Of a DNA stretch of 64,000 nt, positions 15,971-64,000 are shown piece after piece. The stretch's first letter is position 1, and each line of letters starts with the position of its first letter. A model generated the notes under the pieces. That model was not told where the DNA came from, made no database searches, and worked only from the letters and a program-made list of their open reading frames with translations. The stretch comes from Mactra quadrangularis (lineage: Eukaryota; Mollusca; Bivalvia; Venerida; Mactridae). The position numbers were made by a program, and so were the translations under genes. The stretch is taken from NCBI GenBank assembly GCA_025267735.1, contig CM046299.1:35416887-35480886 (forward strand), read 5' to 3'.

Positions 15971-16094
15971 AATGGAGCTTGGTGTAAATTATGGAATTAA
16001 GTAATAAGTGTTTCAGTCCTTGAAATTTGCGAAAGTTTCCTTGAAAAGTCCTTGAATTTTGTTCTTAGAAAAGAATGGGAACCCTGCATGACAA

Positions 16095-16270
16095 TGTCCA
16101 TTTTCTTCCATTGATTAGATAATATGGAGAAGTTTCCGGCCTTATGGAAGGGTACGTGAGTACTGGTTATAGACAATGGTCCAGGAAAGCTAGGTTAGGT
16201 GCGCTGGACGCCGTAAAATGACCTAAATTGTGTTGACACGGCGTTAAATCCAATAACAAAAATAATAATA
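16095..16270 (+). repeat. SINE family 2, 3' part
   Basis: The 3' two-thirds of the SINE present in full at 22424-22713, including GGAGAAGTTTCCGGCC, AGTACTGGTTATAGACAA, GGTCCAGGAAAGCTAGG and the GACGCCGTAAAATGACC tail, ending in an (AAT)n tract. Confidence 0.9.
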
Positions 16271-16921: not shown

Positions 16922-17245
16922 TCAATAAGAATGTTTTTTGTCTAGTTTAATCCAATCATCATTGGACTGTCTTTTGTGAAATATCTCAACTGATGCAGAG
17001 ACCCTTGTAATTTTTAAATGTAATTGCTTGGAAATTCTACTCAGTTCATTCAAATTTGGATACATCCACAACTTGACGTCAAATACACATTTCAACATAT
17101 CACAATTTTCTACAAGGTCAGTTAAGTCATTACTTGTACCAGTTGCTCTTAGTTTTCTACTAATGTTGCTGAATGCCGAGTCAACGTCTTCGTGTGTGTG
17201 ACCCACAATTAGAAAAAAATAGTTTAACCTTGAAGTAAAAAAAGT
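16922..17245 (-). pseudogene. DUF7869-like transposon/host protein fragment
   Basis: The minus-strand frame reads LNYFFLIVGHTHEDVDSAFSN, followed by a mostly charged stretch of about 85 residues to a stop at 16922. GHTHEDxD with a preceding hydrophobic strand is the signature of a domain annotated as DUF7869, often found in multi-copy proteins of invertebrates; its biochemical role is not established to my knowledge. No other part of such a gene was recognised nearby, so I treat it as a relic or isolated exon. Confidence 0.5.
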
Positions 17246-18950
17246 AATGATGTAACAGTTATTTCTATTTTACTACCATTTATAATAATAACTCGTACTA
17301 ACATTAAAGAACAACAGTTGTCAACAGACATCATGCTTGACTGGTTTGGGTGCTTAATATATAACAAATATAAAATCTGAAAAACCTACAGCAGAGCAAA
17401 TGTTAACTCGAGTGTGTGATTTATATGAATTTGACCAACAGAAAAAAAATCATAGAATTTGACTTAGTAGTTTGTATGTCAACCTTCAGCGGTTAACGTT
17501 CTAGAAAAAATCGAATGATAGCATAATGCCACAGTAGGTGCTTTCAAAATAAGGTAATGAATACGCAAACTCTTTGACATAAGTTTTAAGCCGCTGGCAA
17601 CTAACATGTAAATGAAATATCATGAACAAACATGTTCGAGTAGAAGACTAAAATTGATATTTATTAGCAATCATCGCTGACAACGTTTTGATTCATTATT
17701 GTTTTTTTTGTCTAGATCATATAAATTAATTCAAGCTCTCATTCAATGAATAAACTTAACCACAAGTATTTACATAATTCCGTAAGATAGTAAGTATGGC
17801 ATAGGATGAGTACATTCAATTTGATAAATAAAAAAGCAACGAAGAAATTACCTCTTTAAATATACTCTTCATGACCAGTATATTAAGAATACCCAGCATG
17901 TTTTTATTACGATTCTCTCTGAAGCGCCTGTTTGCATGTATGAAGGGTAATCCCCCCCCCCCTGAAAGACAAACTTGGATCATTCTTATCAACCTCAACA
18001 AGGTAAAGATGAAGCATAGTAAATCCTTCCAACTTTTTAATATCAAATTTTATGTAAAATTTCTTCATTATGAAATGTCCATAACAGTGAACAAGCAAAT
18101 ATATTGCCAAATATTTTGCCCATGATTCTGGTATGTACCATGAATACACTTTTAAAAAATAACCCAAAATTTATTGATCTATATGCAAATAACATCTGTA
18201 TATGGTTCTGTTTTTCTTTCATATGAGTGTGTTATTGCTGGTTAAGTAATAGTGAACTGGTGTATTGTAATAGTCCATCGATTAAAGTATAATTAGGAGA
18301 TTTCATATTCATGCTAAATTAAAAAAAATCCGAAAAGCCTAGAATTCTTCGAACTTCTATAGTCTATTGTAATAACCTACCAATGTTGTTTCATACATAC
18401 AACTGCATACACATGAATTCATATCTTATTGACAAACAAAAAGCTTAACTGATACATGGAATATAGTTTGCATTTGGCAAAATAATGATTTCCCATAACT
18501 AGTAAAAAACATTTTTCAAGTCAAAAGTAAATACCTGGATAAATCAAATAAAAATAACATAAGAAAAAATAACTCACATTACTATCGCTTGCTTTCTTCC
18601 ATGCTTATAGTAAAATATTGATTGTCAAGTTTGGGTCATGGGGATACTGGTTAAAATCAAGATAACTGTGGAAACCACCATGGCCATGATTAATAATTCC
18701 AGTTATGTGAGTTTTCAAAAGAACAGCATGGTTAATATTCTGCTAAATATCAGCTAAATGTGAGGCTCGGTTAAAAATGGCATACAAACCTAAACAATCT
18801 TTATCACTGGCATCAGTAACATTAAAATCTAAACAAGCTCTACCGGCATTTTGTTGGATGTTGTCTTATTTTCTATAATATTTTTTTCAATTTTGATATC
18901 CACAGTTTAGTTCGCTTATCTCCAGATATGTAATTAAACCCCTTTCCACA
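17246..18950. other. AT-rich DNA without recognised gene
   Basis: Only short unsupported frames are present. A run of eleven C (about 17951-17961) is the only notable sequence feature. Confidence 0.5.
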
Positions 18951-22423: not shown

Positions 22424-22713
22424 AACCCGGGTCGATAGCGCAGTTGGTAGCGCGCCGGGATTTGGATACTCGTGCCCGAGGGGGTGCGGGTTCGAATCCC
22501 ACCTGGGGAGGTTATACCCTTCCATGAAAATTTGACAAAAATGTCGAGTTTCCTCCATTGATTAGATAATATGGAGAAGTTTCCGGCCTTGTGGAAGGGT
22601 AGGTGAGTACTGGTTATAGACAAAGGTCCAGGAAAGCTAGGTTAGGTGCGCTGGACGCCGTAAAATGACCTAAATTGTGTTGACACGGCGTTAAATCCAA
22701 TAAACAAACAAAC
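22424..22713 (+). repeat. SINE family 2, full copy with 11-bp target duplication
   Basis: The tRNA-like head GGTCGATAGCGCAGTTGG (A box) and GGGTTCGAATCCC (perfect B box) is followed by the family body and a GACGCCGTAAAATGACC tail ending in (CAAA)n. AAGTGTGACTT flanks it at 22413-22423 and 22714-22724, a perfect target-primed duplication. It interrupts the minus-strand LINE. Confidence 0.95.
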
Positions 22714-24418: not shown

Positions 24419-25401
24419 GTCTAACAGAATTAACCTGAGCATGACCTTTATGCAAGAATATATTAAACTCAGTGGGTCCATTCCAATCATACACTCCGAG
24501 TGCTCGGAGTGGAGTAGCTGAATGGAACGTGTCTGCTCCAGAACGAGATCGGAATTAGAAAAACCAACATGGCGACCATCTGTCAACTATTCACACTATT
24601 GGAGACAGATAGCAGGACGAAGCCTCAGTTGATGATATAATGCCTTTGCAAGCTTCTATTGTATAGGTCTTGTATGTTAAATTATAGTGTTGATATTGAC
24701 GTTTTTCAAAATAATGTTTTGGCTTTTTGTACCATAGAGCGTTGACTGTTGCCATTCTAAAGGGTAAAACTGTTTAAGTATACACACCAAAATACTACAA
24801 AAAGTTTAATTAAAGTAACATATTACTGATTTGATTGACATTTAAGCTTAACCCTGTCAAAATTGCTCCATAACATTAAGAAAATATACAGCCTTATTTC
24901 ACAAACCGCCTCATGCCGCCATTACTACAACAACAACTACTCTCTCTGCACCACCTATATTTTTAGAGCGGATTGAGCACACTCGGAGCGCACTCTTTTG
25001 TCGTTCCTTTGCACATAGGAGTACTCCGAGCACTCCGAGCGCATGATTGGAATGGACCCAGTATTTACAGTCTATTTTTGTCTTCGTTTGTAAATCGCGC
25101 TTTATCGGAAGCTTTCGGGAAAAAAACACGTACTGAAAAACTAATGTTGTTTTTATAAAAATAAATACTTTGAACCTCTGCCATAATATTGCTGACTTAC
25201 TTGTTTCCTCAAAAACAAATGTGTCCAAAATTAAAAGTACAATAACATGCCACTTTTAATAAAGTGATTTATAGTCACATCGGTAGTTATAAACACGTGT
25301 ATAACTGTATAAACACAGGTACGGAATCTCACGTTTTAATGTAAGTGAAGTGTGTTATTATTATAATTAGGTAATTCAAACTCAGGTTAATTCTGTTGGA
25401 C
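24419..25401. mobile_element. 983-bp TIR element holding a nested MITE
   Basis: Ends GTCTAACAGAATTAACCTGA (24419) and its complement ending at 25401 are inverted with one mismatch over 21 bp. Just inside, ATGACCTTTATGCAAGAATA is shared with the 4071-5040 family. The middle is occupied by the element at 24474-25059. No transposase; flanking duplication unclear. Confidence 0.65.
24474..25059. mobile_element. 586-bp Harbinger-like MITE, AGT duplication
   Basis: TIRs start GGGTCCATTCCAATCAT and continue with CTCGGAGTGCTCGGAGT-type repeats at both ends. AGT flanks both sides (24471-24473, 25060-25062). A 3-bp duplication and GGG ends fit PIF/Harbinger, although the usual target is TWA. Nested in the element at 24419-25401. 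Confidence 0.7.
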
Positions 25402-25635
25402 TTTAACATAATTGAACTAGTCCATGGACATTTTACTACGTTTATCAATTTAACTATACATTTTACAAGCACCTAACACCAAGCCAGGTAGCATTCCCAC
25501 TCAGTTACATACTACTGAGTGTCCAAGGAATCGCTTTCCTGGCTGTTAAAACTATACTCTATCATATCTATACTGCCCTCTATCAAACTTGAATGTATGT
25601 ACAGTATTTGTGTTTTTGTTTCTTTTTTTCACTTG

Positions 25636-25758
25636 GTTTAACGCAGTGTCAACACAATTTAGGTCATTTTACGGCGTCCAGCGCACCTAACTTAGCTTTC
25701 CTGGACCATTGTCTATAACCAGTACTCACCTACCCTTTCACAAGGCCGGAAACTGTCG
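25636..25758 (-). repeat. SINE family 2, 3' part, minus strand
   Basis: Minus-strand match to the family tail: CCGGCCTTGTGAAAGGGTAG, GTACTGGTTATAGACAATGG and the ACGCCGTAAAATGACC block. Confidence 0.9.
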
Positions 25759-26059
25759 ACTGGAAGGTAGACAGACGACCTGCACCATAACATAATACGA
25801 CCGAAGGATCCTTCGGTGTATAAAAAGCATTATTATATTTGAAGATTTTGGTAGAGTCGTTTTCAAACGACTAAGTACTTTTTTTGCAGTACAAGGCAGT
25901 GTCATTGTGGATATAGGGGCTTAAACTAATGTCTAAAATGCCGTGTATACTTTCGTGTCTGTTATATTATATAATTATAGTTTCTTTGAGCATTGTTGTA
26001 TGTTAAGTATTTAAATATATGAGGATTCATTTAAGGCTTCAAATGGATGTTTTAACCGC

Positions 26060-26774
26060 TTTTAGTTGAGAAATAAGATGACGTTGCATACTGTTTGTGG
26101 TAAAATGGGGAATTGTTGAAGACTGGATATTATATGGTGACATGATAGTGTGAAGGATTATCAACCTTGTGATATATACAATATGTATGAGACAGGACTG
26201 TTTTATCGGGCTTCACCTAATAAAGCATTTCCTGTAAGTGACAATGGTTGGTAAGGAGGAAGAATTTCAAAGACGGGATAGCAGTGATGCTTGGTGTGAA
26301 GATGATTAGATATTGGTAAGGCTGTTAAGCCAATGTGATTTAGAAATTAAAGTGTAAATAAGCTACCATTTGGACATTTAATAAGAAGGGGTGGATGTAT
26401 ACAGATTATTCATAGATTGGATTAAATTATTTGATAATAAAATGAAGAAAGCTCCGAGTAAAAGTGTTTTACTATTAGATAATGCTCCATTCCATCTTTG
26501 TAATTTGATACATTGTAATGTGAAAGTTGTGTTCTTGCCTGCTGATACCACAACAGTTTTAAAGCCTCTTGATCAAGGAATAATTCAAGTCATGAAGCAG
26601 AAATTTAGGGAATTGTTATTAAGAAGTGTAATAACCAAAATTAACGATAATGAGAAAGGTACTGCAAAAACTGTTTCAAAGGGAATTGGTATACTAGACG
26701 CCATAAAGTGGCTAACGTCTGCAGTAAAAGATATTCAGCTAGAGTTGGTCAGAAAGAGTTTCATACCTCTTTAA
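26060..26774 (+). pseudogene. Tigger/pogo transposase relic, copy 1
   Basis: 26060-26390 encodes, with several stops, the start of the DDE_1 catalytic region (YNMYETGLFYRASPNKAF, GKAVKPMWF). 26391-26774 is open and encodes FIDWIKLFDNKMKK, SVLLLDNAPFHLC (second Asp), VVFLPADTTTVLKPLDQGII, MKQKFRELLLR. These are the diagnostic pogo/Tigger blocks. The CENP-B-like DNA-binding half is missing. The end runs straight into a second copy of its own start. Confidence 0.85.
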
Positions 26775-27286
26775 GTTGAGACGTAAGATAACATTAACTA
26801 CTGTTTGTGGTGAAAGTGGCAGTGTTGATCTGGGAACTGTTGATGACTGGATTAGTAAGTTACATGATAGTGTGAAGGATTATCAACCTTGTGATATATA
26901 CAACATGGATTAGACAGGACTGTTTTGTCGGGCTTCACCTGATGAAATATTATCTGTGAGTGGACAAGATTGTAAAAGGGGAAGAAATCTAAGAACAAGA
27001 TAACAGCGATGTTGTGTAAATATGACTGGTCAGTTTGAGAAATCATTATTGGTAAGGCTGCTAAGCCAATGTGCTTTAGAAATTTACATGTAAATAAGCT
27101 AGTAGTTGTTTGGACATAGAAAGAAAGCGTGGATTACAAGCAGAATATTCATGCATTGGATTAAATTATTTGATAAGGAAATCAAGTTACCTGACCGTAG
27201 AATCGTTTTATTGTTAGATAATGCTTCGTCCCATCCTAGTGAATTGAAACTTGGTCATGTGAAAGCTGTGTTCTTTCTTCCCCTTA
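26767..27286 (+). pseudogene. Tigger/pogo transposase relic, copy 2 (tandem)
   Basis: Repeats copy 1 with a period of about 707 bp: VDDWISKLHDSVKDYQPCDI, YNMD-stop-TGLFCRASPDE, and RIFMHWIKLFDKEIK with VLLLDNASSHPS. It carries more stops than copy 1, has lost the C-terminal part, and is joined at about 27286 to a LINE polymerase fragment. Confidence 0.8.
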
Positions 27287-33848: not shown

Positions 33849-34500
33849 CTATTTTAAGTGGTTTGCAATTAGAGTCCCACGATTTGCAACACTCCAGTAA
33901 CAAACGACACTTTCCTACAAAACCCGCTTTACAAAATGTATCGTAATGATCAGCTTTTTTTGCAATTTTAGTAGCTCCGGTCTATCAGTTGTTTTTTTTT
34001 CAGTTGCCATATCAATGTTTAACTAATGTGAATCAATTTAATTATTATATTTATTTTCTTTAAATTGATTTAAATAAAACAAAGGTTTTATAAAATTCGT
34101 AAACATGCGAACTAAAACATATTTTATAAAAAAATATCTGAACGCTAAAAATTCTATTTTCAACTTGCATGGATGTTTATGATTTGCAATATCCAGTGTA
34201 TTTAATTCTGCATGAATCACATGTTGAAGATGTTGCAAGACAAGTGTTTCATCTATTAAATGTCATTCTTCAAAGGACCAAAATGTGTCGGCGATCTTCC
34301 ATATTTTATATCTCAAACACCATTTGCCTTACTTCAGTTTTCATAAAATTAAGCATATTTCTAGTGCCAAAAAGGGATTTTGTTGGTTGCACTAAAATAT
34401 ATCTCAATGCAAAAATAATGGTTTTTTTTTCTTTGCTTCCAGTTCTTTGATTTTTTTATGCATGCTGACACCCACTAACATGGGCGATGTCAATATGTAC
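33849..34500. other. Upstream region of the peptide gene
   Basis: No gene recognised. A 93-codon frame at 34169 shows no family resemblance and no coding bias. Confidence 0.4.
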
Positions 34501-34502
34501 AG

Positions 34503-34509
34503 TATATCT
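34503..34509 (+). promoter_or_regulatory. Possible TATA-like box
   Basis: GTATATC lies about 25-30 bp before the likely transcription start of exon 1 (near 34530). Short and in AT-rich DNA, so weak. Confidence 0.25.
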
Positions 34510-34529
34510 TACCAGCTACCATTCGTTGT

Positions 34530-34606
34530 TCATCGGTAGTCTATTGAAGTGAGATTCTCTGTCTGCAACGTAGTCTCTAAATATTACATAATCGGAACAC
34601 AAAAAG
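34530..34606 (+). other. Peptide gene, exon 1 (5' UTR)
   Basis: The exon has no ATG start and ends at AAAAAG before the donor GTAAGC at 34607. The 5' limit is a guess from the TATA-like motif. It would splice to the acceptor at 35464. Confidence 0.5.
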
Positions 34607-35204
34607 GTAAGCGTTTTAAATCCATGTAAAATCTAGATGTTTTGATGAAACTTTTTACAGATTTTTTAACATGAAAGATCGAAGTGCATTATAAGCTACT
34701 CATTAAATTTATTTACTAATTAGTTTAAAATTTGTTCAGCGATTTTAATTAGTTGAGTTATGTAAAGGGATTCTGCATACAGAAAACGTTCATTTAGCTA
34801 AACAGAGCATCAAGACTATTAAAATTTTCTAGACGTAACGACATTAATTCGAAAGGTATCATTTACTTGCTTGTTGTATAATTCTGACCTTAACAATATG
34901 TTTCTATTAACATCGTCCCGACGCTGTGAATAGTGTTCATTAGTTCCAGCCTAACTAAAAAAGAAAGTATCACGAGCTTATTAATCCGAGCCTGTTTTCC
35001 TTTATACAATTAAGTAAGTAGAAATACATTCATATTTTTTCTGCACTTAGTCTTACTTGAACACATTTCGAGTTCTTTTGAAAATTACAGGCCTTCTAAA
35101 ATAATCTAATTAGGAACATTTATACACGTAACAAGTATACTAAGTAATATATCACTATAACATGCCATGGTAATTTCAATAATTGGTTTCATCGTAATGA
35201 CATT

Positions 35205-35290
35205 ATGTTAAAACCACTATATAAAGCTATATTCATCAACAGTAGACTTGAAAACTGTTTTACAAAAATGAAGTTATCAGAATATAATAT
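35205..35290 (+). repeat. piggyBac-like MITE end in intron 1
   Basis: After TTAA the sequence AACCACTATATAAAG and the following 75 bp match the reversed right end of the 14425-14930 MITE (AGTAGACTTGAAAACTGTTT shared exactly). The other end was not found, so it is partial or too diverged. Confidence 0.7.
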
Positions 35291-35471
35291 GCATTGGACT
35301 TTTAAAACCCGTCTACTTTCTAAATTTGAATTTGACAATGTGGCCATTTCTTTAAAAAGTGTGGATACATTTATAAGAGCGCACTATATTCATTTATTCG
35401 CTAATGTTCAGTATAAAAATAATTGAGGTATATTCACTTGTCGTTAATTATTGTTTTGTTTCAGCAACAAT

Positions 35472-35654
35472 ATGATGAATCTTCGAGTAATGTTGATATT
35501 AACATTATACATGATAATGTTCATTCTATTCGTACAATGTAATCCTATGGACATGAACAACGTAGAAGTTGAGACAGTTCAACAACAAACTTTCCATGAG
35601 AGATTAAACTCTATCATTTGTCAGCTTACTTCATTCATGTGTCCTGCTAAATAA
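35472..35654 (+). CDS. Small secreted peptide precursor, 60 aa, exon 2
   Basis: The whole coding sequence lies in one exon preceded by a strong acceptor (TTGTTTTGTTTCAG ending at 35464) and followed by a donor (GTAAGC at 35658), three bases after the stop. Residues 1-23 are a clear signal peptide (MMNLR, then LILTLYMIMFILF), with cleavage likely after Gln22 or Cys23. The mature part is about 37 residues, acidic at first, ending SIICQLTSFMCPAK. It has two Cys (50 and 57) six residues apart, so one small disulfide ring is possible. No dibasic processing site; Arg45 could be a monobasic one. The C-X6-C spacing equals that of allatostatin-C peptides, but the ring residues differ, so I do not assign that family. 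Start: two consecutive ATGs; the first is taken. Confidence 0.7.
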   Translation: MMNLRVMLILTLYMIMFILFVQCNPMDMNNVEVETVQQQTFHERLNSIICQLTSFMCPAK

Positions 35655-35767
35655 ATGGTAAGCAATAATGGGTGAATTCATTTAGATTTATTTTCAACAA
35701 AAATTAAATGTGAAGAACATATAATAAAATTCGATAACGTAGCCGAGTATGAAGTTCAAATATCTTG

Positions 35768-36045
35768 GGTATGTAGGTGTAACGTCGTGGCAACACATTT
35801 CATAGGTCATATATCACACCGGTCAGTCAACCTACATACCGACCATTCATGGAAAGGCAAATCTCTAGATTAAGCTGTTTACCAGTTAATAGGCGCATAC
35901 TTTTGTCAGTGACTGACAACTGCCTTACATGATTAAGAATCAGTGGTAGAAAGGAAAGCGAGTATTTCATGACCAAACTCTACGAATGTATCACCTGCCC
36001 TGGAATCAAACCTACGACGCCTCGACTTGTGGTGCCTGATTTAAC
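35768..36045 (-). repeat. SINE family 1 in intron 2, minus strand
   Basis: Reversed tail (AACACATTTCATAGGTCATA), core (GCATACTTTTGTCAGTGACT) and a decayed head (GGAATCAAACCTACGA) of family 1. Confidence 0.85.
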
Positions 36046-36311
36046 CACGTATCAGTTCTAATCGAACTATATGTAGTATTTTGTCTAGATAATACAACTA
36101 CTACTAGTAACTTCATACTTTTATAACACTGGTAGCATTTGATATGTATTGATACTGTTTAACTGAACTTAACTTCAAACGGACTCGAATTTAACACTGA
36201 TCATGTCAATTTGACCAAACAGAATATTCTCGATGGTCAATCAAGTACATGACCATCATTATTAAAAAATGCAGACACTAAATACATACAACATTGTTAT
36301 TAACAAAACAA

Positions 36312-36607
36312 ACCAGGTCGATAGCGCAGTTGGAAGCGCGCCTGGATTTCGAATCTAGAGTCTCGAAGGGGTGCGAGTTCGAATCCCACCCGGGGAGGTT
36401 ATACCCTTCCATGAAGTTTGACAATAATGTCAATTTTCATCCATTGATAAGGTATATCGAGAAGTTTCCGGCCTTGTGGAAGAGTAGGTGAGTACTGGTT
36501 ATAGACAAGGGTCCTGGAAAGCTAGGTAAGGTGCGCTGGACGCCGTTATATGACCTATACAATGTGTAGCTACGGCGTTAAACCAAACAAGATAAATAAA
36601 TTATATA
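36312..36607 (+). repeat. Mosaic SINE: family-2 head and body, family-1 tail
   Basis: The head (GGTCGATAGCGCAGTTGG, GAGTTCGAATCCCACC) and body (GAAGTTTCCGGCC, GTACTGGTTATAGACAA) are family 2. The last 50 bp, GCCGTTATATGACCTATACA onward, match family 1 rather than the GCCGTAAAATGACC tail of the other family-2 copies. AACAAAACAA flanks at 36302-36311 and 36608-36617. Confidence 0.85.
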
Positions 36608-36806
36608 AACAAAACAATGCTGCAAATTTAACTTACACATAGCTTCATAATAAGTCTCAGAAATACGTTTATATTTGTATAATTTTGTCGTGTGTGTATA
36701 AGGGGGACTAAAGGCCCAAAATTTATGCTAAGAAAGTATAGTTTAGAACACTTAGTGTCTTGTATTTTTTCACTTTGTACAGATATTTTTTGTTTAATCA
36801 TTTCAG

Positions 36807-36915
36807 GTTAACATTAAACAAATACAGACTGTGGTATATTCTACATGATGGACAATTTCTGTTTATTATAAATGTAGAAGTAACAATAAAACTTACTGAA
36901 TAATCTTACATCACA
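36807..36915 (+). other. Peptide gene, exon 3 (3' UTR) with poly(A) signal
   Basis: The acceptor TTGTTTAATCATTTCAG ends at 36806. The exon carries AATAAA at 36895-36900, so cleavage is expected near 36915. With exons 1 and 2 it makes a complete small gene: non-coding exon, coding exon, 3' UTR exon. Confidence 0.55.
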
Positions 36916-43065: not shown

Positions 43066-46000
43066 CAGAACAGAACAGAACAGAACAGTAATTTTATTTA
43101 GAAGAGTACAAAGTACATATTCATAAATACATAAAATATAATAACACATATAATCAATATAGTAATGCATACAGTACATTTGAATTTTGACAAGAAGATG
43201 AACATATTTTACTAGGAAATATAAATATAAACAGGTAGTATCTCACATAATCAAAATATAAATAAATATTTAGTATAATATCACACAATAATTAGTTGAG
43301 TTTTCATTTTAATAGCTTCTTTAACAAAAATTGAGACTTTGATTAACGTTGAAACATTTTGACAATTTAATAATTCAATAAATTTAAACATAGAAGGTTT
43401 TTTGTAAAAATATGGTTTTATATATTTTTTACGAATATCAGAATAAAAAGGGCACGTGCATATAATATGAAATTCGTCCTCAATTTCGTTCTTAGAACAA
43501 AATCTACAGAGTCTTAAATTATGAGGAGTGTTATTGTTAGAATATCGTCCGGAGTGAATACGAAATTGATGACCAGCAAGTCTTAGTCTACAAAAATAGA
43601 ATCTATACTTTCTGGGTAAAACGTTCAAATATTCTTCATAATGAAACAATGTTTTACAATAAAAATAATTCTTTAACAAATTACAATGTTCTAGCTTATT
43701 AAACCATTCTTGTTTAAATGAATCTATTATTCTAGACTTAAATATATATGGAAACATTTTTATATCTATGAAGGTGTCATTATTAAAAATATTACAAAAA
43801 CCATATTTATTCAGTAGTGTTTTTACATCAGATACCCAATTGGACATGCCATTATTGCAATCTTTTAAATTTTCATCGTACATAGATTTCAAAATAATAT
43901 TATCAGAATGTTTTACCTTTAACCAGTATTTTATTATTCTTACATAACGTTTAATATATAGTGGGTATCTCCCTAGCTCACCGTAGACAGCTATATTCGG
44001 TGTACTTTTAGGGACCTTCAAAATAGATTTACAAAACTTTAAATGAATACGTTCTATTTCATGTGATTTTGAATACCCCCAAATCTCAGACGAATAGCTT
44101 AAAATGGATCCTACAAAAGAATCAAACAATTGACATAAAATATAAGGCTTTAAATCAAATTTATTACAATAATGAGTAAAAGTATGTAATGCTTTTAAGG
44201 CTTTACCACATAAATGTTCTTTATTTAAGTTAAAATTACCAGTATAATTAAACACGGTACCTAAATAATTAAAACTGTCTACTACATCTAAAGTTTCCCC
44301 ATCATAGGTCCAAGATTCATCTTTTAATAATTTACCCCTTTTCCTAAAAACCATAACTTTCGTTTTGGATGTATTCACCTTAAGACCCCAAGTGTTGCAG
44401 TAAGTATTTAACATGTTCAAATGGTTTTGTAGTTCCAGTGGAGTTTTAGCTAAAAGAGCCATGTCGTCTGCAAATAAAAGAATAATAAGGGCAATATCAT
44501 TGAAATGTAACCCCGATTCACTATCATTTTGTAAAAATAACTCCAGATCATTGACAAACAATGAAAATAAGATAGGTGATAAAACTTCACCTTGGCGTAA
44601 ACCAACAGCATAATTAAAATAATCAGAAAAATCAGAACATGATTTAACACAGGATTTAACTTTTACATACATATCTTTCATAATACGCAATAATTTACCT
44701 TGGATGCCCTGTTTATACAGTTTCAACCAAAGTGCATTCCGATATATTGTATCAAAACATTTGGATAAGTCCACAAAAGCTACGTATAATCTTTTGTTAC
44801 GATTTAGATATGTTTGTACAATAGACGTAAGAATAAAAATTGCATCCACAGTTGAACAGTTTTTACGAAATCCAAATTGAGCATCCGATAAAACATGATA
44901 TTTTTCACAAAATGACTCTATTCGTTTATGTATAACCGTGGTAAATAACTTAGAAAAACAACTGACCAATGTGACCCCCCTATAACAATTTACGTCATCA
45001 GAATTCGATTTCTTAGGAATTGGTATAATAATAACCTCAGTCCATTTCTCAGGGAAAACTCCAGATTGTAAAATTGCGTTAAAAATATCACATATATGAG
45101 ACCCAATAATATCGAAACTATTGATAAAATATTCGTTTAGTAAGCAGTCAGCGCCGAACGCTTTGTTTGTTTTAAGAATGTTCACAGCTTTTTTAATTTC
45201 TAACAATGATATCGGCTCGTCTAGATCTTCAAATCTAGGATTAACAGTATCATTAAAATCATGCTCATGACAGAAAGACTCAGCTTCTTCATTATTGCAT
45301 TGTGTTATACCTTCACTTACATTAGCAAAGAAATCACGAAAACTATTCAAAGAAATATTATTGTTATTGTTTAATCTTTTATTTTTAAAGAATTTCCAAA
45401 ATTGTTTAGGGTTTGAATTTCTCAAATTTTCGATTTCTCTCATTTTTACGTTATAATATCGACGTTTCTTTTTACGAATTAATTGTTTATAAGATATTTT
45501 TGCGTCACAGAAAATACGTCTATTTTCAGGAGAGTTACATTGATTAAGTACACGTAATGACCGTAGGTACTCAAGTCGTGAATTAACGCATTCAAAATCA
45601 AACCATTCTTTGTGCTTAATACTTGATGAATCAATGAAACGTGACGAGTTCGAAAACTTTATTTCTTTGCTAAACAAAGGATCCGCAATATTTCGCATAA
45701 TATCAGTAAACCCGTTAAGAACATTATTTATCGAATCCCTACTCGAAATGTCGATACTAGTGACTAAAGAATTTAACTCGGGTAATCTGGCAAAAATTCC
45801 ATCTCGAAAATCACGTAAACGAGAATTGTCCCATTTATATGTAGTATCAATGTTTTCATGTGAATTATTTTCATAGTGATTACAATATAAAGATAGTATT
45901 AACGGACAATGGTCACTCCATTCATTCGGTGCACAGACCGTGAAATCTTTAATTAACGTGAAATAGTTCTCATGTGTTAATAAGTAATCTATGGTTGATG

Positions 46001-46682
46001 CCCCATTATTAGATATATATGTGTAAGAGTTAGAATCACCGATTCTACCGTTGGCGATACGTATACACGATGCCTTACATAATTCAATTAATTTTCTACC
46101 GTGAGTATTACATACTGTATCAATAGAGGCCCTGTCGAGGGTCAAATCTGGACAATAATCATCATCGTCTAAATGAACATTGGTAGAATCATTACATATA
46201 TAATCTTTTTTATTACCAATACGACTATTCCAGTCACCAATCAAAAATAGTGAGCCTTGGCTCTCAAAATCACAAATATCATTTTGTAGAACATCAAATA
46301 AATCAATATTTACAATATTATAAATAGGTGAATTCTCACACCAAATATATACACCACAAAAATATACATCATTATGAAAGTGAAAAAACTGTTTGTCTAA
46401 TTTTAACCAGATTATAGCGTCATGATGAGATCTTACAATTTTAACACCATCCGCAATCGACTCTTTAATATACACTACAATACCACCACTATTGCGTAAA
46501 GCACGTCTATTTTGATACTTCCGGTAAAAATTATAACTCCTATAACCAGATATATCAATTTTACTATGTTTATTGGTCCAACTTTCCGTTAAGAATATTA
46601 TGTCATTTGATGTTATAAGTTCAACAAATTCCGGCGAATCTTTCTTGGATCTCGCCACCTCTCTAGAATGTGTATACAGTTA
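43066..46682 (-). mobile_element. Nearly full-length APE-type LINE with (TGTTC)n tail
   Basis: The element runs on the minus strand from about 46682, where the endonuclease starts abruptly, to a 3' end of four or more TGTTC repeats (43066-43087). It carries one large frame (43281-46658) and a 3' UTR of about 195 bp. No ORF1 was found upstream, so the copy is 5'-truncated. A microsatellite tail and lack of RNase H fit the CR1/L2/Daphne group of LINEs. Confidence 0.85.
43281..46658 (-). CDS. LINE ORF2: APE endonuclease and reverse transcriptase, 1125 codons
   Basis: Unbroken frame. Endonuclease, residues 1 to about 255: TESW 24-27, GDWNSR 141-146 (catalytic Asp and Asn), STIDYLL 221-227, WSDHCPL 247-253 (catalytic Asp/His). 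Reverse transcriptase, about 480-760: NKAFGADCLLNEYF, PIPKK with CYRGVTLVS, FVDLSKCFD 628-636 (first catalytic Asp), GLRQGEVLSPILFSLF from 686, FADDM 729-733 (catalytic pair). The C-terminal Cys/His motif LCRFCSKNEIEDEFHIICTC lies near 1065. No RNase H. The first codon in the frame is GTG and the first 10 or so endonuclease residues (the WN.NG strand) are missing; a TAA lies upstream at about 46685. So the protein is 5'-truncated though otherwise complete, implying a recent insertion. Confidence 0.9.
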   Translation of the reverse strand: MARSKKDSPEFVELITSNDIIFLTESWTNKHSKIDISGYRSYNFYRKYQNRRALRNSGGIVVYIKESIADGVKIVRSHHDAIIWLKLDKQFFHFHNDVYFCGVYIWCENSPIYNIVNIDLFDVLQNDICDFESQGSLFLIGDWNSRIGNKKDYICNDSTNVHLDDDDYCPDLTLDRASIDTVCNTHGRKLIELCKASCIRIANGRIGDSNSYTYISNNGASTIDYLLTHENYFTLIKDFTVCAPNEWSDHCPLILSLYCNHYENNSHENIDTTYKWDNSRLRDFRDGIFARLPELNSLVTSIDISSRDSINNVLNGFTDIMRNIADPLFSKEIKFSNSSRFIDSSSIKHKEWFDFECVNSRLEYLRSLRVLNQCNSPENRRIFCDAKISYKQLIRKKKRRYYNVKMREIENLRNSNPKQFWKFFKNKRLNNNNNISLNSFRDFFANVSEGITQCNNEEAESFCHEHDFNDTVNPRFEDLDEPISLLEIKKAVNILKTNKAFGADCLLNEYFINSFDIIGSHICDIFNAILQSGVFPEKWTEVIIIPIPKKSNSDDVNCYRGVTLVSCFSKLFTTVIHKRIESFCEKYHVLSDAQFGFRKNCSTVDAIFILTSIVQTYLNRNKRLYVAFVDLSKCFDTIYRNALWLKLYKQGIQGKLLRIMKDMYVKVKSCVKSCSDFSDYFNYAVGLRQGEVLSPILFSLFVNDLELFLQNDSESGLHFNDIALIILLFADDMALLAKTPLELQNHLNMLNTYCNTWGLKVNTSKTKVMVFRKRGKLLKDESWTYDGETLDVVDSFNYLGTVFNYTGNFNLNKEHLCGKALKALHTFTHYCNKFDLKPYILCQLFDSFVGSILSYSSEIWGYSKSHEIERIHLKFCKSILKVPKSTPNIAVYGELGRYPLYIKRYVRIIKYWLKVKHSDNIILKSMYDENLKDCNNGMSNWVSDVKTLLNKYGFCNIFNNDTFIDIKMFPYIFKSRIIDSFKQEWFNKLEHCNLLKNYFYCKTLFHYEEYLNVLPRKYRFYFCRLRLAGHQFRIHSGRYSNNNTPHNLRLCRFCSKNEIEDEFHIICTCPFYSDIRKKYIKPYFYKKPSMFKFIELLNCQNVSTLIKVSIFVKEAIKMKTQLIIV

Positions 46683-55368: not shown

Positions 55369-56442
55369 GAATATATCACAGGGAATTGTCAAGTTACCTC
55401 CCTTTGATTTTTCAAACATACCTTTTATTTCACGGCGTCTCTTTTTTTAATGCAGTTATTGTACAGCGCATTCCCGTTAAAAGTTACATAGAAAAGGCAT
55501 TTTGGTGGAAACCATATAAACAATATTTCTATCAACAGTGCAACAAACGAAAAATCAGCTTTTTACATCAACACATTTCCGCAAATCTTTTCGACTCACA
55601 TGAAAAGGTGTTGGTATAATTTGCGGACCAACCGGACCAGCGGACCAGTTTAGTATACGGATACAGTATGACAAATATGCGTATCATAATGTGTGTATAG
55701 TCGATATATAATTGAGATTTGCCAATATTTTTTTAAAAAAAAATAATATTGATAGAATTTTGGGAAATTACAATTAGTATTTATTCAAATGTAACTATAT
55801 TAATACTGATATAGAAATTATTTTTTTCTAAGAAATAAGTGGATAATAAATGTAGATTTCAACTATAAAAAAATCGTCGATTGCTTCATTACATATTGTT
55901 GTAAATATTATATATTTCAACTATTAGAGACTTAATCATTTGAAAACAATTTTGACAGGATTCAAATGTAATAATTTAATTATATACCTTTTTGTCCTTT
56001 TTAGCGGACTGTATAAATAAAGAAGCCTAATCGTGTAACATTGACTTTTAATTCTCACTTTAATTGAGTTAAATTGACGATCTTTTCAAACTATGATTAA
56101 GTGTAGCGGACCAGTTAATTTTAAGAGCGTAAGAGTTACAAACTAGGTTGTAGATCGAGCAGGTGTAAAGATAAACTATTTTGTATAGCAAATCTACATC
56201 CTACTGCTTCTGGACAGTTCGGTATGGGCTAATCTGTGGACGAACTTTCTAATGATAATTATGACGCACCTTTACATCGTCATGTTTTGTTCTTGGGAAG
56301 TAGCTGTTGCGGTTAAAATGCCTCTTTTTATGTACTTTGATTTTCATTTTGCCCCGAGACCAACGATCGTCCCTTATTATACAGATCACTTTTTGGGAAC
56401 CAATAGTCTCACGGATTGGTAAGGACAGATCCGCACTTGACT

Positions 56443-56764
56443 GAACAGAAGCGATAAGTCATATAAATAGTTCTGTTCTGAAAGACTACGTGTTCCCTTT
56501 TGACGATCTTTTTAAGCGTCATGAACAGAAGCGATGTCATATAAATAGCTTATGTTCTGAAAGACTACGTGTTCCCTTTTGACGATCTTTTTAAGCGTCA
56601 TGAACAGAAGCGATAAGTCATATAAATAGCTTATGTTCTGAAAGACTACGTGTTCCCTTTTGACGATCTTTTTAAGCGTCATGAACAGAAGCGATAAGTC
56701 ATATAAATAGCTTCTGTTCTGAAAGACTACGTGTTCCCTTTTGACGATCTTTTTAAGCGTCATG
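56443..56764. repeat. 80-bp tandem array, four copies
   Basis: Units start at 56443, 56523, 56602 and 56683, each with GAACAGAAGCGAT, TCATATAAATAG, GTTCTGAAAGACTACGTG and CGATCTTTTTAAGCGTCAT. Each unit folds (AACAGAAGC against GCTTCTGTT, best in the last copy). The array is open on the minus strand, giving a repetitive 93-codon frame that I do not regard as a gene. Confidence 0.95.
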
Positions 56765-59590: not shown

Positions 59591-61920
59591 ATGGAACATT
59601 ATGTGCCCAACCACACTGTGCGAGGCAACATTCACCAAGGTGATTTAAGTTTTCAAGATTTAAGTTCAGCTAATGGAACACAATGTACAGCCATAGCTTT
59701 TGTCGCCATTGTGTTTGCTGCCTTCCATATGTAGCCTAGCTTGTGGCAGCCTCAACATTTAGATACAATAGTATTTGAAGGCGATTTTGTTTATCATGCA
59801 ATTGTTAATGATTTGTTTAATGGCAATGTGACTGTTATGCTTACCCATAATGATATACCACCACAGTCAACAATTCTCAATGAGCATTTTGCAACAAGTC
59901 TTACTACTACATTTTATGGAACTGTTGACATGCAGGCTGAAATGCAGATGCAGGGACACACAATTTGTATGATGGTCTAACCATGGCTTTTGCGCAGTCT
60001 CAATGGTTGATAGCCACTTTCCACAGTACCTCCAATGCCATCTTTTCTGATGAAAATCATATTTATGTTTTTGATTCTCATGCTCGTGACAGTCTTGGTA
60101 GAATTGATCCTAAAGGCTGGCGTCCACTAGGACGCCGAATGGACAAGGAAGCTTTACGGTAAAAATAAATCAATTTCGGCACACTTTCTGCGTCTGAAAT
60201 GTAACATCTGAACGCGAATTTATTTGTCCGTGGAATGTCTGTGAGCATACTTAAGAGTGTCCTAGTATTGTCCTCGTAGACATTTTGGCATGGTACCGAA
60301 TATTCAGGTGTATAAACGGTACGCTCAATGACAATACAAACACATTTGACTTACATCCGGAAGCGATAGAGACAGTCGTCTGCAATGCATGTCACTCTGC
60401 GGACATGATGCAGACAAACAGTTTATCTCTCATTCGAGAAAGTTCCGCCAAAGATTCGGATGTATTGCTTTATTGTTTCAAATAGAAGCTAAAAGCCATG
60501 TTTAGATAACTCAGGTACTTGGACACAGGAGAAGTCAGAGAAAGCACTGGTGGTGGTTGCGACCCTGGCTACAATGGAACTTCTCTTGCATTATTGTCAG
60601 TTCGAGATCTTAATGTAAGAATTAAGAGCTGAAGATGTAGCGTCTTTTAAAAGTACCTACGAATCACTCCGAACATGGTCGACGAAATACTTCAACGTGT
60701 GACACCTAGGATCCAGAAGAAGACAACCAGGTTTAGACATGCCATTTTTGCTGGACTTTCATTGGCTGTTTCTCTAAGGTACATGACCACCGGTGACACC
60801 TTCGCTTTCTCGAGGGCGACAAATTGTTTAAAAATGCGTTTGCTATATTATCATCTCAGTGGCAATGTTTGGCAAAGACAATGCTGCATACACCAAACGT
60901 GGTCAAGATTGTTATATCTGCTTGTATTTGTCTTCACAACCTTATTTGATTGAAATACGCTTGGATCGCGGTCAGATGGACGTTGAGGTTGTTGAACACA
61001 GCGTGATATAAGGGGCGTGGAGGAATTGTATGCATGGTATTGGATGAACTTAATCAGTCACTTGAGGCAATGCGAAAATGTGTCTGAAAACCATAAAAGG
61101 GAATATATGAGTATGTACTTTAGTAGTGAGGCTGGTTCAGTGCCTCGATAGGAAAGAATGCTATACGAGACATGATATGAATTTTGCGCTAAAATTCAGA
61201 TTCGTTCTCGATGGGATTCTCTGTAAATAAGTAATATTAAAACATTGTTCAATACTTGTACATTCATAAGCAGTATCCTATTCAATGATTCAATTCTTAG
61301 ATTTTTTTACGAAATACAGCTTCAGAAATCCTAAACGCTTCTGACGTGTATCGTAATTATGACGTAATTTGGTAATTTTGCATAGACAAAGAAGTCACGT
61401 GACATTTTCACCGTTGATCCTTGATCATACCGCAACCACTCTGGACGCTCATGAATGATTCTTTAAACCTTCCACATTTATTCCTTTAACCTTCCACACA
61501 TTGTCCTGATTGTCCGCGAATTGTCCGCGTCGTTGAAGCATTCAGGAATGCCTGCGGAATATTCAGGATGTCCTGATGATGTCCTGACGACAACCCGGAC
61601 AAGATGCCGAAGGTGTCCGAAAATTTATTTCCGCGTCTAAATTTTGCTCTCGATCAAAATTTTGACGCGGACAAATTTATCGATCCCGAAGGCGCCGAAA
61701 CGTGCGGAAGTGTTAAGGACATATTTAAGAAGCTAATAGGATCATGCGGAAGTCTTGCTGAATGTTAAATTATGATTCCGCGTGTTGTCGGCACCTTGTC
61801 CTGACCTAAGTGGACGCCAGGTCTAAAGGAACAAGTGTTCTTTTACAATTTACCAGCATTGAGCATTTACTTTTTTATTTACACCGAGTGTACTGTAATC
61901 AAATGTACAATCTTTCTCCC
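59591..61920 (+). pseudogene. Cysteine-protease-like gene (C76/OTU-like fold) cut by a Harbinger element
   Basis: From ATG at 59591 the frame holds RGNIHQGDLSF and NGTQCTAIAFVA, with a candidate catalytic Cys at residue 32, then WQPQHLDTIVFEGDFVYHA. A TAG lies at 59732-59734. A frame change near 59965 leads to FSDENHIYVFDSHARDSLGR and DPKG. This order (GTQCT, then a FDSHSRD.G block) is that of a peptidase family resembling the herpesvirus-tegument C76 type, found in many multi-copy invertebrate genes; the family call is by motif only. A 1.7-kb Harbinger element sits at the DPKG codons; the frame continues after it at 61827 with TSVLLQFTSIEHLLFYLHRV. The stop and frameshift make it a pseudogene or unspliced relic. 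Confidence 0.6.
60114..61823 (+). mobile_element. PIF/Harbinger element, internally deleted, TAA duplication
   Basis: Ends AGGCTGGCGTCCACTAGG (left) and GACCTGGCGTCCACTTAGG (right, reversed); TAA at 60111-60113 and 61824-61826. 60655-60800 encodes the N-terminus of a Harbinger nuclease (TPRIQKKTTRFRHAIFAGL, LAVSLRYMTTGDTF). It is joined directly to C-terminal code at 60805-60950 (SRGRQIV, ACICLHN-like, out of frame), so the DDE core is gone. 60290-60480 encodes another Harbinger C-terminus-like piece (FDLHPEAIETVVCNACH). A second copy follows at 62266. Confidence 0.85.
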
Positions 61921-62262: not shown

Positions 62263-62265
62263 TAA

Positions 62266-64000
62266 AGGCTGGCGTCCACTAGGATGCCGAACGGAAGAGG
62301 AAGCTTTACGGTAAAAATAAATCGATTTCGGCATACCTTCTGCGTCTAAAATGTAATATCTGAACGCGAATTCATTTGTCCGCGGAATGTCTGCGAGCAT
62401 ACTTATGAGTGTCCTCGTATTGTCCTCGTAAACATTTTGACATCGTACCGAATATTCAGGATTAAAAACGGTACGTTCAATGACAATACAAGCACATTTG
62501 ACTTACATCCGGAAGCGATTGAGACAGTCGTCTGCAATGCATGTCACATTGCGGACATGATGCTGAGAAACAATAGTGACATGTCATTTTATCTCTTATT
62601 CGAGCAAGTTTCACCATGGAGTTCGGATGTCTTGCTTTATTGCTTCAAATAGAAGCTGAATTCTATGTTCAGATGTCTCTGGTACTTGGATACAACAGAC
62701 GACAGAGAATGCGAAGGTGGTGGGTGCGAATCTGACTAAAAATGAAACGTCGCTTGCATCATCGTCAGTTCGAAACCTTCATATAAGAATTAAGAGCTGA
62801 AGATGTACATTGGCGTCTTTTAAAAAGTACCAACGAATCACTCCGGACATGGTCGACGAAATACTTCAACGTATGACACCTAGGCTCCAGAAGAAGACAA
62901 CCAGGTTTAGACAAGTCATTCTTGCTGGACTTAAATTGGCTGTTACTCTAAGGTACGTGACCACTGATGAAACCTACGCTTCCATTTCATAACCTTATCC
63001 ATCGGCAAAAGATAACTATCGTCTTTCTCGAGGGCGACGAATTGTTAAAAAGGAGTTTGGCATCGTATCATCTTGCTCGCTATGTTTGCCAAAGACAATG
63101 CTGAAAACACCAAACGTGGTCAAGATTGTCATATCTGCTTGTATTTGTCTTCACAACTATATTAGAGATACGCTAAATAGGATCGAGGTCAGATGGACTT
63201 TAAGGATGAAAAATACAACGTGATATTACGGGCGTGGAGGAATATGGTGGTTTTGGATGAACTTAATCAAGCAATCAGGGGAGGCAACGTCGAAAATGTG
63301 CCTGGAAAGCATCACAGGGAATATCTTAGTATGTACTTTAGTAGTGAGGCAGTGATTGGGTAGGAAAGAATGTTATTTTGTGACATGTTCACATGTGACT
63401 TATAGACTACAGTTGACATTAACAATAAATACTGTATTATGAACATTCTGAGATGACTATGCTTCTAGAGTAACATATAAAAGACAAAAATCAGATTGAA
63501 AAAATGTCATGAGACATTATTTGCACTTTGCGCTCTAAATTCAGATTCGTTCTCAATGGCTTTCTCTGTAAATAAGTAATATCAAAAAAATGTTCAAAAC
63601 TTAAACATTCATAAGCAGTATCCTATACCATGATTCAATTTTTAGTTTTAGATATTTACGAAATATAGCTTCTGAAATACAAATTGTTTCTGACGTTTAT
63701 CGTAATTATGAAGTAGTTTGGTCATTTTGCATAGACAAAGTAGTCACGTGACATTTTCAACGTTGATCCTTGATCATACCGCAATCATTCTGGACGCTCA
63801 TGAATGATTCTGCGAACCTTCCACATTTATTCCTTAAACCTTCCAAACACTGTCCTGATTGTCCGCAAACTGTCCGCGTCGTTGAAGTATTCAGGAAAGT
63901 CTGCGGAATAGTCAGGATGTCTTGATGATGTCCTGACGACAACCCGGACAAGATGCCGAAGGTGTCAAGAAATTTATTTCCTCGTCTAAATTTTGCTCTC
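62266..64000 (+). mobile_element. Second copy of the PIF/Harbinger element, runs off window
   Basis: Starts AGGCTGGCGTCCACTAGGAT after TAA at 62263-62265. Same order as 60114-61823: 62437-62652 (FDLHPEAIETVVCNACH frame), 62812-62992 (FKKYQRITPDMVDEILQRM, LKLAVTLRYVTT), then the C-terminal region (LSRGRRIV at about 63022, ISACICLHNYIRDT at about 63133), then the tail repeat with GATGTCCTGACGACAACCCG. It carries about 35 bp more around the N/C join (YLIHRQK-like code) and is a little less deleted than copy 1. The right end is not in the window. Confidence 0.85.

What the first reader, a model, noticed from the sequence alone, without database searches (positions are those of the whole stretch)
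34503..36915. A compact three-exon gene for an unknown 60-residue secreted peptide
Seen: donor GTAAGC at 34607, acceptor TTTCAG at 35464, a coding exon with a strong signal peptide, donor GTAAGC at 35658, acceptor TTTCAG at 36806, and AATAAA at 36895. Four good splice sites, a poly(A) signal and a signal peptide in the right order are unlikely by chance. The stop codon lies 3 nt before the last junction, so it would not be a nonsense-decay target. The mature peptide ends SIICQLTSFMCPAK; its C-X6-C ring has the spacing of allatostatin-C peptides but not their ring residues. It may be a lineage-specific neuropeptide, venom-like or immune peptide (inference).
Basis: partly seen in the sequence, partly recalled or inferred. 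Interest (0 to 1): 0.75.

Follow-up and report, generated by a model that had tools for sequence, protein, structure and literature searches.

The report
Probable orphan secreted-peptide gene, bivalve-like genome
A short stretch of what looks like a clam-type genome probably holds a real gene for a 60-residue secreted peptide with no relatives found so far; such private secreted peptides are common in shellfish, so it is plausible but ordinary until a transcript is found.

Summary
A 60-codon ORF (35472-35654) with a signal-peptide-like start lies in one exon between an acceptor and a donor, with an ATG-free non-coding exon upstream and a 3'UTR exon with AATAAA downstream. Signal ORF + acceptor + donor near the stop arose in 1 of 1200 Markov windows, in 1 of 60 under looser rules, and nowhere in 200 kb of the same chromosome; thresholds were set after the fact. 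Codon usage gives no support. No homologue was found, though these searches reach few molluscs. A protein search of the 979-Mb assembly finds only this copy. It is not allatostatin-C: ring residues and aromatic end are absent. The exon plan (5'UTR-only exon 1, intron just before the ATG, signal and mature peptide in exon 2, short exon 3) closely matches mussel myticalin genes (PMC5577615), but the peptide is not a myticalin. Best reading: an orphan bivalve-like secreted-peptide gene, expression unproven, role inferred only. Interest is low to modest.

The parts
34503..34508 (+). TATA-like element (TATATC); with TCATC at 34530-34534 (Inr-like) it fits a start near 34532
   Evidence: Read; function is inference
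34532..34606 (+). Exon 1, 5'UTR only (75 nt if the start is right), no ATG, stops in all three frames
   Evidence: a strong acceptor at 34443 leaves open that the exon begins further upstream
34607..35464 (+). Intron 1 (GTAAGC...TTTCAG), 858 nt, holds a repeat at 35208-35415
35465..35657 (+). Exon 2, carries the whole coding sequence
   Evidence: no other copy at E<=1e-4 in 264 kb of the same chromosome
35472..35654 (+). CDS, 60 aa; first ATG of the spliced model, in-frame stop upstream
35472..35540 (+). Predicted signal peptide, residues 1-23, cleavage V-Q-C|N
   Evidence: Hydropathy and -3/-1 rule; no dedicated predictor was available
35604..35651 (+). C-terminal 16 residues after Arg44 with Cys50 and Cys57 (C-x6-C) and a 3-residue tail
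   Evidence: cleavage and disulphide are inference
35658..36806 (+). Intron 2, in the 3'UTR, 1149 nt; holds a dispersed repeat 35776-36025 and a SINE-like repeat 36310-36600; alternative acceptor at 36783
36807..36915 (+). Exon 3, 3'UTR, AATAAA at 36885-36890, then CA and a GT/T-rich stretch

Best explanation
A real, apparently single-copy, fast-evolving or young gene of a bivalve-like animal that makes a small secreted peptide. Shown: the splice, start, stop and poly(A) signals are in order and one exon encodes signal-like residues 1-23 plus 37 more. Inferred: the transcript is spliced from three exons; the ribosome starts at the first AUG; signal peptidase cuts after Cys23; Cys50 and Cys57 pair into an 8-residue ring; and the acidic first part (24-44, charge about -3) may be removed at Arg44, freeing a 16-residue, slightly basic, looped peptide. 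The likeliest use is extracellular defence or mucosal secretion, a guess from the myticalin-like gene plan; a signalling peptide is second.
For: Signals in order. Core pattern rare by chance: 1 of 1200 Markov windows, 1 of 60 under looser rules, none in 200 kb of the same chromosome. Exons match nothing else in 264 kb while both introns hold repeats. No ATG in exon 1 and an in-frame upstream stop. One place in the 979-Mb assembly at E<=1e-3. Same exon plan as mussel myticalins (PMC5577615 passages). Charge split: 24-44 = -3.1, 45-60 = +0.7.
Against: Codon usage is no better than other ORFs of the window: 72nd of 94 with the window's LINE as coding proxy; synonymous-only test inconclusive. No homologue in the collections searched. 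No transcript data. Acceptors only fair. Cut-offs chosen after seeing the case. That three repeats all miss the exons is likely by chance too, since exons make up 377 of 2384 nt (my estimate, about 0.6).
Confidence: 0.62

Rival explanations
1. Not a protein gene: a spliced long non-coding RNA, or chance alignment of signals, with a chance 60-codon ORF whose AT-rich start reads as hydrophobic residues.
For: 94 ATG ORFs of 50-150 aa in the window, 3 of them signal-type; T-rich DNA encodes hydrophobic residues; codon usage gives no support; 1 of 60 simulated windows gave the core and the full pattern under looser rules.
Against: Core pattern in 1 of 1200 stricter simulated windows and the full pattern in 0 of 1200; core pattern absent from 200 kb of real sequence; start and stop fit the splice sites tightly.
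Confidence: 0.28
2. A diverged allatostatin-C/somatostatin-type hormone, acting through a somatostatin-type receptor.
For: C-x6-C ring near the C-terminus after a signal peptide, one looped peptide per precursor. A single Arg precedes the looped part, and monobasic sites are accepted for this family in the literature.
Against: AstC peptides have one Tyr or Phe after the second Cys; here the tail is PAK. The ring QLTSFM shares no residue, position by position, with the Aplysia and scallop rings printed.
Confidence: 0.03
3. A small membrane peptide: the hydrophobic stretch stays as an N-in/C-out anchor.
For: Uncharged stretch of about 16 residues (6-21), mean hydropathy 2.5 over 17 residues.
Against: Short for a membrane span, followed at once by a fair -3/-1 cleavage site.
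Confidence: 0.1

Closest known systems
Myticalins/modiocalins (mussel antimicrobial peptides, PMC5577615; passages read)
   Same: Three exons, two introns; exon 1 only 5'UTR; intron 1 just before the ATG at the 5' end of exon 2; exon 2 with signal and mature peptide; exon 3 with 3'UTR
   Different: Myticalins are cationic, linear, multigenic, restricted to Mytiloida, with a C-terminal acidic propeptide after a dibasic site and a phase-1 intron 2 inside the coding sequence; here one copy found, two Cys, acidic part first, intron 2 in the 3'UTR; taxonomic range not testable
Molluscan allatostatin-C (PMC8786951, PMC8514136, PMC5996578; passages read)
   Same: Signal peptide, one looped peptide, two Cys with six residues between
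   Different: No aromatic residue after the second Cys, no ring similarity; only a single Arg as possible processing site
Thanatin (insect; PMC7913509 passages)
   Same: Single C-x6-C ring with a three-residue tail (Cys11-Cys18 of 21)
   Different: Thanatin is strongly basic (pI 10.48, basic loop); here the ring has no charged residue; resemblance of geometry only

Membership tests
Allatostatin-C type | Two Cys separated by six residues | tested here: met
   Cys50 and Cys57
Allatostatin-C type | One aromatic residue (Tyr/Phe) after the second Cys at the peptide end | tested here: not met
   Ends CPAK; feature stated in PMC5996578, Aplysia example
Allatostatin-C type | Basic processing site before the looped peptide | tested here: inconclusive
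   No KR/RR/KK; a single Arg44 only; monobasic sites are accepted in PMC8514136
Myticalins | 5'UTR-only exon 1 and intron just before the ATG | tested here: met
   Exon 2 begins 7 nt before the ATG; paper passages; splicing itself not shown
Myticalins | Linear cationic mature peptide with dibasic site and acidic C-terminal extension | tested here: not met
   pI 4.83 if cut after Cys23, two Cys, no dibasic site
Thanatin type | Basic disulphide loop | tested here: not met
   Ring QLTSFM has no charge; thanatin described
Small secreted peptides in general | Cleaved N-terminal signal peptide | tested here: inconclusive
   Hydropathy and -3/-1 rule met; cleavage not measured, no trained predictor run
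Small secreted peptides in general | Spliced, polyadenylated, translated mRNA | not testable with these tools
   No RNA data for the animal

The most novel reading that the evidence does not exclude
A lineage-private secreted peptide born in a transposon-rich gene desert: an orphan with a single charge-free C-x6-C ring, released from an acidic propiece at a single Arg, used as a signal or defence molecule and belonging to no known peptide family.
Probability: 0.25. Interest if true: 0.45.

Novelty: new member of a known kind. Interest (0 to 1): 0.24.

Why it matters
If transcribed, it adds one more orphan to the lineage-restricted secreted peptides of molluscs, whose origin (new genes from non-coding DNA versus fast divergence) is an open question, and offers a small testable gene in a transposon-rich region. 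It is the kind of gene that protein-similarity searches tend to miss.

Tried and rejected
Homology: protein database (no candidate sharing three words), viral contigs (4 pattern matches, none confirmed), prokaryote genomes (38 pattern matches, none confirmed), PDB (9 sequences up to E 10, best E 0.76, by eye none meaningful), Pfam (DUF4972 E 0.0028, 18 bits against a cut-off of 28.8, and DUF4969 E 0.13; I take both for signal-sequence artefacts), NCBIfam (none), paper full text for two peptide strings (0 papers). The collections are viral and prokaryotic, so their nulls mean little. The protein database does hold some bivalve and other animal proteins, but needs three shared exact 5-residue words, so one search excludes only close relatives held there. 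Rfam at gathering scores: none in the window. tRNAs: none.

Local paralogues: tblastn in the window gave, besides the gene, a best E of 0.022 (16 hydrophobic residues at 24684-24731); with 200 kb more, the two other hits had E 0.74 and 0.82. The scripted chance tests used recalled, approximate splice matrices. The codon test used the intact LINE ORF as coding proxy, which may not represent host genes. Other looped molluscan neuropeptides seen in passages of PMC4200219 have other spacings: elevenin Cys at 5 and 14, conopressin four residues between. Literature searches seen as listings with abstract starts only; papers then opened by passages are PMC8786951, PMC8514136, PMC5996578, PMC4200219, PMC5577615 and PMC7913509; no paper was read whole. 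One search was a malformed paper search, not answered.

Full report
What is there. Exon 1 ends AAG|GTAAGC at 34607. Intron 1 ends TTTCAG at 35464. Exon 2 begins CAACAATATGATG. The ORF runs from 35472 to a TAA at 35652-35654. Exon 2 ends ATG|GTAAGC at 35658. Intron 2 ends TTTCAG at 36806. It is followed by a CA near 36915 and a GT/T-rich stretch. I add a TATATC at 34503 and an initiator-like TCATC at 34530, spaced as a TATA promoter would be; this is inference. In the spliced model the ORF begins at the first ATG, exon 1 is closed in all frames, and an in-frame stop precedes the ATG.

How good are the signals. By an approximate recalled matrix the donors are 3rd and 20th of 3708 GTs, and the acceptors 139th and 70th of 3261 AGs on the plus strand. 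Two stronger acceptors complicate the ends: 34443 (2nd of 3261) could put further exons upstream, and 36783 (18th) could start exon 3 24 nt earlier. Neither alters the 60-residue frame, but an exon from 34443 would bring in upstream ATGs.

Chance. A signal-type ORF of 50-150 aa with an acceptor within 60 nt and a GTRAG donor within 50 nt after the stop appeared in 1 of 1200 simulated 64-kb windows; with the upstream donor, the downstream acceptor and AATAAA, in 0 of 1200. A first run with any GT scoring at least 5, within 60 nt, gave 1 of 60, for the core and the full chain alike. In 20 x 10 kb of the same chromosome, with looser cut-offs and ORFs of 40-150 aa, 10 of 457 ORFs were signal-type, 1 had an acceptor and none had both; in the window 4 of 168 were signal-type and only this one had both. 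Four of the 20 stretches lie next to the window, within 20 kb of its ends. The cut-offs were set near the observed scores, so the figures flatter the case.

Results against. With the intact LINE frame as coding proxy the ORF ranks 72nd of 94 ORFs in codon score. The synonymous-only test lies between the models (15.7% of non-coding draws score as high, 5.3% of coding draws as low). Eight of 60 residues are Met, which may lower the codon score for reasons of composition. No homologue was found in the collections searched, and no tool here holds transcripts of the animal.

Surroundings. The window is C7:35416887-35480886 of a 979,026,929-base, 447-contig assembly. C7 is 53.8 Mb. Of nine window frames scanned with Pfam, one is an intact LINE protein, two are DDE transposase pieces, one a DUF7869 piece, one a zf-RVT match below its cut-off, and four gave nothing. 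Of the two stretches next to the window whose frames I listed, one (L003) has LINE-like frames that by eye resemble frames of the window, and the other (L004) shows nothing I recognise; no family scan was run on them. The LINE protein gave 50 hits; three carry an organism name, one of them the clam Ruditapes philippinarum (49% identity, 37% of the query), and unnamed contigs are closer. A bivalve is therefore likely but the species is not shown. Intron 1 holds a repeat (35208-35415, one other copy seen, in the window); intron 2 holds a dispersed repeat (35776-36025: 11 non-self matches in 7 of 21 records) and a SINE-like repeat (36310-36600: 23 matches in 14 of 21 records). Exons 1, 2 and 3 match nothing else in the 264 kb. 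In the whole assembly the protein finds only itself at E<=1e-3; the DNA searches meant to confirm this did not complete.

What the product looks like. Residues 1-23 form a short n-region with one Arg, a hydrophobic core and a V-Q-C|N cleavage site. If cut there, the remaining 37 residues are acidic (pI 4.83, charge -2.2). Residues 24-44 carry the acid (-3.1); residues 45-60, after the only internal Arg of the mature part, are slightly basic (+0.7), moderately amphipathic if helical (moment up to 0.49), with Cys50 and Cys57. There is no dibasic site and no C-terminal Gly. No structure prediction could be run.

Comparison. Allatostatin-C in molluscs has C-x6-C, but with one aromatic residue after the second Cys and MFNVVA (Aplysia) or LVNLVA (scallop) in the ring (PMC8786951, PMC5996578; passages; PMC8514136 passages). 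The present peptide fails that. Thanatin has the same ring size and tail length, but a basic loop (PMC7913509 passages): geometry only. The gene plan, though, is that of mussel myticalins, where exon 1 is 5'UTR only, intron 1 stops just before the ATG, exon 2 has signal and mature peptide, and exon 3 the end (PMC5577615 passages). The peptide itself is not a myticalin (acidic, two Cys, one copy found, intron 2 in the 3'UTR).

Verdict. The likeliest explanation is a real, orphan, secreted-peptide gene of a bivalve-like animal (0.62; the 0.03 for a diverged allatostatin-C is counted inside it), with a non-coding or chance pattern as the main rival (0.28) and a membrane peptide next (0.10). Its role is not shown; defence or mucosal secretion is my first guess because of the layout, signalling the second. 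Orphan secreted peptides are, to my knowledge, ordinary in this group, so interest is modest.

Noticed in passing
43284-46676 (-): Intact LINE open frame of 1131 aa with endonuclease and reverse transcriptase domains; possibly a recently active element.
   Followed up: partly
36310-36600, also 22424-22712, 16093-16265, 25620-25754: A SINE-like repeat, 23 non-self matches in 14 of 21 sampled records of this chromosome, the window included.
   Followed up: partly
56442-56764: 81-bp tandem repeat, four copies 97% alike, open as a 27-residue repeat on the minus strand.
   Followed up: no
60111-61651 and 62263-64000: Direct duplication, 80-88% identical, running to the window's edge.
   Followed up: no
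26055-27275: Tandem duplication (74% identity) with a DDE_1 transposase piece at 26385-26771.
   Followed up: no
16925-17269 (-): DUF7869 fragment, of unknown function.
   Followed up: no
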